DNA of 64,000 bases from Bdellovibrio svalbardensis (lineage in GTDB: Bacteria > Bdellovibrionota > Bdellovibrionia > Bdellovibrionales > Bdellovibrionaceae): contig NZ_JANRMI010000004.1 of assembly GCF_029531655.1 (NCBI RefSeq), forward strand, positions 496,001 to 560,000, in the 5' to 3' direction. Position numbers and translations under genes: made by a program. Shown here one piece after another: positions 12,476-57,454 of the stretch (within the stretch, counting starts at the first letter, position 1; each line of letters starts with the position of its first letter). The notes below the pieces were generated by a model. It was not told the origin of the DNA. It was given only the letters and a program-made list of their open reading frames with translations, and made no database searches.

Positions 12476-12605
12476 GGCTGAGCCAAACGGTTCAGCCGCA
12501 AGGCGGAGGTCCATCCTCACAGCGCAGGCGTGGCAGCGCCACGTCGGAGCGAGGAGATGGGCCGACAACGCAGTCGGATGGGCCGTTTCGCTCGGCCGAC
12601 GCTAG
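12476..12605 (-). repeat. Structured intergenic element, family 2, copy 1
   Basis: A 130-bp segment that aligns end to end with 45411-45538. Outer arms at 12476-12490 and 12583-12597 pair at 13 of 15 positions. Inner helices are GGTCCATC with GATGGGCC, GCGTGGC with GCCACGT, and CCGAC with GTCGG around loop AACGCA. Between the two copies the paired bases change together while loops and GCAAGGCGGAGG stay constant. The end CTAG overlaps the TAG stop of the minus-strand gene at 12602. Confidence 0.8.
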
Positions 12606-24392: not shown

Positions 24393-24647
24393 ATGGCACA
24401 AATCACAATCTACAAAAAAGACCCTTGTCCTTTCTGCGATCGCGCAATCAATTTTCTTAACGGTAAGGGTTTGGCTTACGACATGGTCGACCTCACCAAC
24501 AAACCGGAAGAGATCGACCGCATCAAAAGCGAAACTGGCTGGAGAACGGTTCCTATCATTTTGATCAATGGCAAACTTATCGGTGGCTACACGGATCTGA
24601 AGGCCCTTGATGACGAGGGTAAGCTTACTGCCCTGCTCGAAGCCTAG
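24393..24647 (+). CDS. grxC: Glutaredoxin (GrxC type)
   Basis: Dithiol glutaredoxin that reduces disulfides with glutathione. The CPFC active site is at residues 12-15, with the cis-proline motif TVPIILING and the GSH-binding GGYTDLKALD. 84 residues is the standard length. GAGG lies upstream of the ATG. The CPFC pair, rather than CGFS, makes it a dithiol enzyme. Confidence 0.95.
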   Translation: MAQITIYKKDPCPFCDRAINFLNGKGLAYDMVDLTNKPEEIDRIKSETGWRTVPIILINGKLIGGYTDLKALDDEGKLTALLEA

Positions 24648-24684: not shown

Positions 24685-24837
24685 GATTTGTTAAGGAAGT
24701 GGAATTCTTAGCTCATGCTTCGATCGGCACGCCGTCCGGGCTCGATCACCGCCGAGCTAAAGCTCGGTTCGCGGCATCGTGCCGCCGGTGAAGGCCGCTC
24801 TACGCATGAACTAAGAATTCCACTTCCTTAACAAATC
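24685..24837 (+). repeat. Long-arm inverted element, family 1, copy A
   Basis: A perfect 27-bp inverted repeat (24685-24711 with 24811-24837) closes a 99-bp core. The core contains hairpins CCGAGC/GCTCGG and GGCA/TGCC and the conserved stretch GGTTCGCGGCATCGTGCCG. The core matches copies B (56891-57038) and C (57310-57454, reverse), while the arm sequence is unrelated to theirs. Confidence 0.85.
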
Positions 24838-32524: not shown

Positions 32525-32575
32525 GTACGCCGTACCTTTTTGCGATGCTCGGCATCGCAAAAAGGTACGGCGTAC
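32525..32575. repeat. Perfect 24-bp inverted repeat with 3-nt loop
   Basis: Arms at 32525-32548 and 32552-32575 are exactly complementary, with loop TCG. The outer ends are GTACGCCGTAC units like the palindrome at 18168. It lies between the Crp/Fnr gene start and the dnaK terminator on the minus strand, so it may also block transcription. Confidence 0.85.
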
Positions 32576-45391: not shown

Positions 45392-45410
45392 AAATTCACC
45401 ACGCAAAGCT

Positions 45411-45538
45411 GGCTTGGTCAAAAAGGTTCACATGCAAGGCGGAGGGTTTTATTCGTAACGGAAGCGTAGCAGCGCTACGCTGGAGAGAAGGATAAGACCC
45501 GACAACGCAGTCAGGTGGGCCTTTTTCACCAAGCCCTA
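45411..45538 (-). repeat. Structured intergenic element, family 2, copy 2
   Basis: Aligns end to end with 12476-12605. Arms 45411-45426 and 45520-45535 pair at 15 of 16 positions. Inner helices are GGGTTTTAT with ATAAGACCC, AGCGTAGC with GCTACGCT, and CGAC with GTC around AACGCA. The end CTAG overlaps the TAG stop of the minus-strand gene at 45536. Confidence 0.8.
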
Positions 45539-56878: not shown

Positions 56879-56890
56879 CTTCGACCGGGG

Positions 56891-57038
56891 ATTTGCGGCT
56901 TAGGCTGCTTTTCCGGTCATCGCTTCGTCGGGCACGCATCCATGCTCGATCGCCGCCGGGCTTTGCCCGGTTCGCGCCATCGTGGCGCCGGCTAAGGCCC
57001 GACTACGGATGCCCGGAAAATCATCCTAAGCCGCAAAT
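56891..57038 (+). repeat. Long-arm inverted element, family 1, copy B
   Basis: Arms 56891-56916 and 57013-57038 pair at 24 of 26 positions. The core (GCTCGATCGCCGCCGGGC, then GGTTCGCGCCATCGTGGCG) matches copies A and C; GGCATCGTGCC of A and C is GCCATCGTGGC here, so both sides of that small hairpin changed together. Confidence 0.85.
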
Positions 57039-57309: not shown

Positions 57310-57454
57310 TTCAAGTTTTGCGTTGTTTGTAGAGTGTCCGTAGTCGGGCCTTAGCCGGCGGCACGATGCCGCGAACCGAGCGCAGCTCGGCGGCGACCGA
57401 GCCTGGAAGGCGTGCCCGACGAAGCGACACTCTACAAACAACGCAAAACTTGAA
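57310..57454 (-). repeat. Long-arm inverted element, family 1, copy C
   Basis: Perfect 28-bp arms at 57310-57337 and 57427-57454. The core lies in reverse orientation relative to A and B and contains CGAGC/GCTCG and GGCA/TGCC hairpins and TCGGGC/GCCCGA pairing. Confidence 0.85.

What the first reader, a model, noticed from the sequence alone, without database searches (positions are those of the whole stretch)
24685..24837. Family 1 elements: conserved core closed by long arms that differ at each locus yet are self-complementary
Three ~150-bp elements (this one, 56891-57038, and 57310-57454 reversed) share a core of about 90-100 bp with the same hairpins, but their outer arms (27 bp perfect; 26 bp with two mismatches; 28 bp perfect) have unrelated sequences. 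Homologous cores in non-homologous but perfectly paired arms means either that the arms are under selection for structure, or that the element makes or targets palindromes, for example by inserting into existing hairpins or by inverted copying of flanking DNA. I know of no named family with this design. Seen: the arms, positions and core similarity. Inferred: a mechanism.
Basis: partly seen in the sequence, partly recalled or inferred. Interest (0 to 1): 0.82.

Follow-up and report, generated by a model that had tools for sequence, protein, structure and literature searches.

The report
Bdellovibrio palindromes with self-rewriting arms
Bdellovibrio genomes carry dozens of similar ~150-bp DNA palindromes between genes whose paired arms differ in sequence at every site yet stay almost perfectly complementary, and the pattern of changes suggests that the arms are copied from one another at the DNA level rather than kept paired by selection on an RNA.

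Summary
A covariance model of the core finds 14 copies in this genome and 311 matches in 22 of 24 Bdellovibrio genomes; one other genus of the family has 3 weak ones. In 110 copies the arms (positions 7-27 from the core) are 89-97% Watson-Crick, but carry almost no sequence conservation; only the outermost ends share a motif. Arms are not new at each insertion: close relatives keep the same copies at the same loci. Yet arms can be rewritten there, both sides together and including indels, while flanks stay 93-98% identical. Wobble intermediates are missing: in 20 core pairs of 45 copies there are 86 two-sided and 0 one-sided changes, whereas SRP RNA of the same genomes shows 2 and 25. RNA-level selection therefore does not explain the pairing. 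The best reading is a Bdellovibrio-specific interspersed palindrome family whose stems are kept complementary by inverted, templated DNA copying. Copies lie near gene ends, and close pairs always face inward (17 of 17). One sits in a published HD100 transcript. Function and mobility remain open.

The parts
24685..24711 (+). Element 1, left arm (27 bp, perfectly complementary to 24811-24837), outer end GATTTG
24716..24807 (+). Element 1, conserved core (H1 24746-24751/24786-24791; P2 24752-24757/24762-24767; P3 24771-24776/24780-24785)
   Evidence: R1 hit G000:C4:520716-520807, 104.3 bits; fold
24811..24837 (+). Element 1, right arm, outer end CAAATC
56886..56920 (+). Element 2, outer motif CGGGGATTTG and left arm
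56921..57010 (+). Element 2, conserved core
   Evidence: R1 hit G000:C4:552921-553010, 103.9 bits
57011..57041 (+). Element 2, right arm and outer end CAAATTT
57426..57454 (-). Element 3, left arm in element orientation (29-bp perfect pairing with 57310-57338)
57336..57426 (-). Element 3, conserved core; forms an inward-facing pair with element 2
   Evidence: R1 hit G000:C4:553336-553426, 111.4 bits; pair rule
57310..57338 (-). Element 3, right arm in element orientation
24393..24647 (+). Glutaredoxin gene just upstream of element 1; no element was seen between this gene and the dus gene in any of the other genomes in which the locus was read

Best explanation
The three loci belong to a Bdellovibrio family of interspersed, strongly palindromic intergenic elements. 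Each has outer end motifs, variable self-complementary arms of about 25-30 bp, and a conserved ~90-nt core with a three-way junction (H1, P2, P3). The stems stay complementary because one strand of a stem is re-made by inverted templating from the other when the sequence folds as single-stranded DNA, for example by intrastrand template switching in replication or by repair of mismatches in an extruded hairpin. That gives block-wise two-sided changes, compensated indels and no wobble intermediates, and it lets arm sequence drift or be replaced faster than the flanks while the core sequence is held. Shown: the family, its copy numbers, pairing without sequence conservation, the missing wobble, rewritten arms at orthologous loci, and the inward pairs. 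Inferred: the copying mechanism, and that the elements are mainly DNA-level repeats rather than RNA genes.
For: Pairing at arm positions 7-27 is 89-97% Watson-Crick at 0.04-0.4 bits of positional conservation. Mismatches in arm positions 10-24 are G.T 8, A.C 16, C.T 20 and A.G 2 in 1530 cells. H1 occurs in at least ten fully Watson-Crick types with 0 G.T in 570 cells; P2 has 0 G.T in 489. The 20 core pairs of A6 show 86 two-sided and 0 one-sided wobble changes; SRP RNA of the same genus shows 2 and 25. At G003/G006 orthologous loci with flanks 93-98% identical, whole arms differ yet pair in each species (L041/L089, L098/L091, L122/L090, with compensated indels), and G001/G004 L031/L032 behaves alike. 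Over 11 G003/G006 pairs there are 60 compensated columns (21 of them gap columns) against 24 one-sided; 12 of those 24 come from one locus. At L082/L078 the left arm and most of the core are identical while one right arm differs at 12 columns. Template switching is known to homogenise inverted-repeat arms and hairpins (PMC8794818, PMC8604942).
Against: No copying event was observed directly; the direction of change at L082/L078 could not be polarised because G010 is too diverged. Mismatches near the core (positions 4-6) and the one-directional G.T asymmetry at the outer ends (163 against 12) persist, so copying would have to spare these or selection would have to hold them. Selection on a DNA hairpin or cruciform recognised by a protein could also remove wobble. 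The 21 compensated gap columns come from one strongly diverged pair whose alignment is poor (L098/L091). Recombination importing a diverged allele could explain some rewritten loci, though flanks and core argue against it.
Confidence: 0.55

Rival explanations
1. The element works as a folded DNA (single-stranded hairpin or cruciform) bound by a protein, as integron attC sites or REP hairpins do. Selection on Watson-Crick pairing, not copying, keeps the arms complementary.
For: Absence of G.T and near-absence of other mismatches in H1 and P2; a sequence-conserved core and ends with sequence-free stems resembles a structure-recognised site; inward pairs in 17 of 17 cases.
Against: Selection alone cannot push arm divergence above the flank rate, yet about half or more of the arm columns differ at some loci where flanks are 93-98% identical. 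No linked protein was found: RAYT-like genes are in 21 of 24 genomes, but none of the 15 neighbourhoods examined shows these elements.
Confidence: 0.2
2. A structured RNA (3'-UTR element or small RNA) whose helices are kept by ordinary compensatory evolution.
For: Copies lie near gene ends with a same-strand upstream gene in 84 of 110 cases, and the core starts 30-72 nt after a stop codon in 48 of those 84. An HD100 copy lies inside published transcript APsRNA6 on the same strand.
Against: No wobble tolerance: 0 one-sided against 86 two-sided core changes, while SRP RNA shows 25 against 2. No Rfam family. In tandem gene contexts orientation is only weakly biased (26 sense, 14 antisense, p=0.08).
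Confidence: 0.1
3. A mobile element that re-inserts at preferred gene-end sites and makes fresh inverted arms at each insertion, so that orthologous loci with different arms are independent insertions.
For: Core types are partly genome-specific (G000 within 0.82 against between 0.77 identity); at orthologous loci of distant species the cores are no closer than random copies (difference +0.003, 23 pairs). Element 1 is absent from that locus in the rest of the genus.
Against: At L041/L089 the two species share a rare core variant and flanks but not arms; partial homology of arms is common among close orthologues; no target duplication, transposase or clean empty site was found.
Confidence: 0.12
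4. Insertion of a conserved core into pre-existing long hairpins, such as terminators.
For: Some copies lie just downstream of intrinsic terminators.
Against: The site without an element in G010 has no arm-like sequence; long hairpins are rare in the window; the outer end motif is shared by many copies, which independent host hairpins would not provide.
Confidence: 0.03

Closest known systems
Quasipalindrome correction / template-switch mutation (PMC8794818, PMC8604942, PMC7202029)
   Same: Inverted, templated copying that makes or restores perfect arms in one event, including multibase compensatory changes; the abstract of PMC8604942 states that it homogenises inverted-repeat arms.
   Different: Described for hairpins in RNA genes and coding sequences; here it would run on a dispersed repeat family with ~25-30 bp arms, and almost no wobble pairs are seen.
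REP / REPIN elements with RAYT (TnpA-REP) (PMC3116915, PMC8266576)
   Same: Intergenic, palindromic, multicopy, occurring singly or in inverted pairs, without a coding sequence.
   Different: REPs are 20-40 bp palindromes (PMC3733652 abstract) and, from my own knowledge, have conserved stems; here stems vary freely and the core is ~90 nt. The Bdellovibrio RAYT neighbourhoods examined do not carry these elements.
Perfect inverted repeats in Nematomorpha mitochondrial genes (PMC6649704)
   Same: Long perfect inverted repeats.
   Different: Lie inside coding genes; nothing in the abstract suggests one family with a conserved core.
Integron attC sites (own knowledge)
   Same: Imperfect palindromes, conserved ends, variable complementary stems, recognised as folded single-stranded DNA.
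   Different: No attC consensus sites or integrase were looked for here; the conserved part is the centre, not only the ends.

Membership tests
REP / REPIN family | Short palindrome with conserved stem sequence | tested here: not met
   Arms at 0.04-0.4 bits per position in 110 copies; element ~150 bp
REP / REPIN family | Copies flank a RAYT (Y1 transposase) gene | tested here: not met
   No long-arm element of this family at the 15 RAYT neighbourhoods fetched
REP / REPIN family | GTAG-type tetranucleotide at the hairpin base | tested here: inconclusive
   CTACG (CGTAG on the other strand) in the window's three copies, CTTCG or others in most copies
Structured RNA family | Helices conserved with wobble-tolerant compensatory changes | tested here: not met
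   0 one-sided against 86 two-sided changes in 20 core pairs; SRP control 25 against 2
Structured RNA family | Match to a curated family | tested here: not met
   Rfam none at gathering; best chance hits E 0.5-0.6
Structured RNA family | Transcribed | tested here: inconclusive
   One HD100 copy lies inside published APsRNA6, which also carries an ORF of about 90 codons
Intrinsic terminator | Stem followed by a T run | tested here: not met
   No terminator-like site directly after elements 1-3
MITE / insertion element | Terminal inverted repeats shared between copies, and target duplication | tested here: not met
   Arms not shared between copies apart from a short outer motif; no duplication seen at the sites compared by eye
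Template-switch-maintained hairpin | Two-sided, block-wise, indel-tolerant stem changes without wobble intermediates | tested here: met
Template-switch-maintained hairpin | Single events seen between ancestor and descendant | tested here: inconclusive
   L082/L078 fits one-arm change but could not be polarised
Integron attC site | Integrase core sites and cassette arrays | not tested
   No integrase search was run

The most novel reading that the evidence does not exclude
The element has its own active cycle through a single-stranded hairpin intermediate that rewrites its stems, so arm sequences are generated and replaced by a dedicated process: a class of dispersed repeat that transmits its fold but not its sequence.
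Probability: 0.15. Interest if true: 0.85.

Novelty: new variant of a known kind. Interest (0 to 1): 0.6.

Why it matters
How long stems keep perfect pairing while their sequence changes is an old question, and template switching has been proposed from reconstructed events in RNA genes. Here up to 29 copies per genome in a cultivable genus show the effect repeatedly, with a contrasting control (SRP RNA) in the same genomes. That makes the mechanism directly testable, and it warns that strong covariation need not mean a functional RNA.

Tried and rejected
RAYT partnership: 15 RAYT neighbourhoods carry no such elements. Known RNA family: none. Phage or plasmid origin: no phage match and only chance-level plasmid matches. 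Scan of one core pattern over GTDB genomes: only the 4 Bdellovibrio records were taken as family members; the other 10 hits were judged chance and not examined. Inverted duplication as the source of pairs: pair members are no more alike than random copies (mean difference 0.0002). Clean empty site: none found; G006 at the L128 locus has lost most of the element to a 1.8-kb insertion. A viral scan with the glutaredoxin protein was uninformative.

Full report
Observation. Arms of 27 and 29 bp are perfect and the middle one has two mismatches. Long inverted repeats are rare in this window: five of 13 bp or more against 0.2 in shuffles, and three of the five are these.

A family. A covariance model of the 91-nt core built from four copies finds 14 copies in this 3.9-Mb genome and 311 matches at E up to 1 in 22 of 24 genomes of the genus (summed by me from its table). 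Record titles of an independent scan name the genus Bdellovibrio. Outside the genus only one of 42 family members has matches, three of them. I fetched 111 distinct copies with flanks. Each consists of an outer motif (left GCGGGGATTTG-like, right CAAATTTTGC-like), arms of about 25-30 bp, and a core whose helices are H1, P2 and P3 in a three-way junction.

Arms. In 110 copies arm positions 7-27 pair at 89-97% Watson-Crick against about 30% expected from composition, with 0.04-0.4 bits of conservation. The register of each copy was chosen for best pairing, which raises the figure slightly. Own arms match with median score 32, arms of other copies with 8.

Orthologous loci. Many copies occupy the same intergenic site in different species. 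Between the close pair G003/G006 some loci keep nearly identical arms (L020/L021 first copy, L106/L135), some change a few columns on both sides (L119/L121), and some have nearly new arms while flanks are 93-98% identical and the core is recognisably the same (L041/L089). G001/G004 shows the same at L031/L032. Such rates exceed those of neighbouring sequence, so selection for pairing alone cannot produce them. In L098/L091 and L081/L137 the compensated changes include indels or whole core-type changes; the column alignment of L098/L091 is poor, so its counts are rough.

No wobble. If an RNA helix were selected, G.U would be the main intermediate. In arm positions 10-24 G.T is 8, A.C 16 and C.T 20 of 1530. 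H1 exists as TTGCCG/CGGCAA, TCGTCG/CGACGA, TCGCCG/CGGCGA, TCGGTG/CACCGA, TCAGCG/CGCTGA, CCGTGG/CCACGG and more, with no G.T in 570 cells; P2 has none in 489. P3 shows 17 G.T, which from the sequences I place at its loop end. RNAalifold on 45 copies counts 86 two-sided and 0 one-sided changes in the 20 core pairs (summed by me). The SRP RNA of 23 genomes of the genus, treated the same way, gives 2 and 25. SRP is far more conserved, so this control shows the kind of change, not its rate.

Context. The upstream gene is on the same strand in 84 of 110; the core starts 30-72 nt after its stop codon in 48 of these. Gene calls were a simple greedy ORF scheme. Divergent contexts are rare (4). In convergent contexts the element is closer to the upstream gene in 34 of 42 single copies (p=7e-5); in tandem contexts the sense bias is weak (26 to 14, p=0.08). 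Among 140 listed copies 17 close pairs occur and all 17 face inward, including elements 2 and 3. Some of these pairs are orthologous, so they are not all independent. Pair members are no more similar than random copies.

Expression. G001 has a contig of 3,782,950 bp, which from memory is the HD100 genome size; the c-di-GMP-I riboswitch falls inside the published merRNA coordinates, confirming the coordinate match. One copy (1339153-1339243, +) lies inside published APsRNA6 (1338787-1339441, +), after an ORF of about 90 codons (PMC3627812). So at least one copy is transcribed in what looks like a 3' untranslated region, and the reported transcript runs past it. One overlap is not proof of function.

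Mobility. Element 1 is absent from the orthologous locus in all other genomes read; the G010 site at L081 lacks both element and arms. Cores at orthologous loci of distant species are no closer than random copies. This fits turnover, gene conversion or strong constraint on the core equally.

Conclusion. The special design is real. The mechanism best supported is inverted templating within folded DNA, as known for quasipalindromes and template-switch mutations (PMC8794818 read; PMC8604942 and PMC7202029 from their abstracts). Selection on a DNA fold is the chief rival and both may act together. The rewriting was shown in relatives, not at the three window loci themselves, which have no close sister genome here.

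Noticed in passing
window 12482-12590 and 45408-45535; L067, L037, L174: A second element family with a different core (AAGGCGGAGG ... CCGACAACGCAG) and outer arms that also differ between copies but pair; one copy lies about 160 bp after a RAYT gene in L174. The same rewriting may apply.
   Followed up: partly
window 32525-32575: A 51-bp palindrome with 24-bp perfect arms and a 3-bp spacer at the start of a Crp/Fnr-like regulator ORF, just before a terminator-like hairpin downstream of the dnaK-like gene. Gene names are from reading the translations.
   Followed up: no
L068 around position 1300: Another long-armed element (CATTTTCCAGAGTATGGGAGTGGG and its complement) with an unrelated core, next to the dus gene in G017.
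   Followed up: no
G001:3606850-3606942, G004:209579-209671, G007:3824299-3824391: An element lies next to the SRP RNA gene in three genomes.
   Followed up: no
L016 after 1600, L177, L178: Short repeats of the type GGTGCCTGCCATCTTTTGGG, seen near RAYT genes, look like a separate repeat family in the same genome.
   Followed up: no
L207:1740-1860 (HD100): A degraded minus-strand copy that seems to have lost P2 still shows paired arms, downstream of the APsRNA6 copy.
   Followed up: no
arm positions 10-24, all copies: Pair types are skewed: G-C 522 against C-G 200, T-A 421 against A-T 340, the direction of asymmetry that PMC8794818 attributes to intrastrand template switching.
   Followed up: partly
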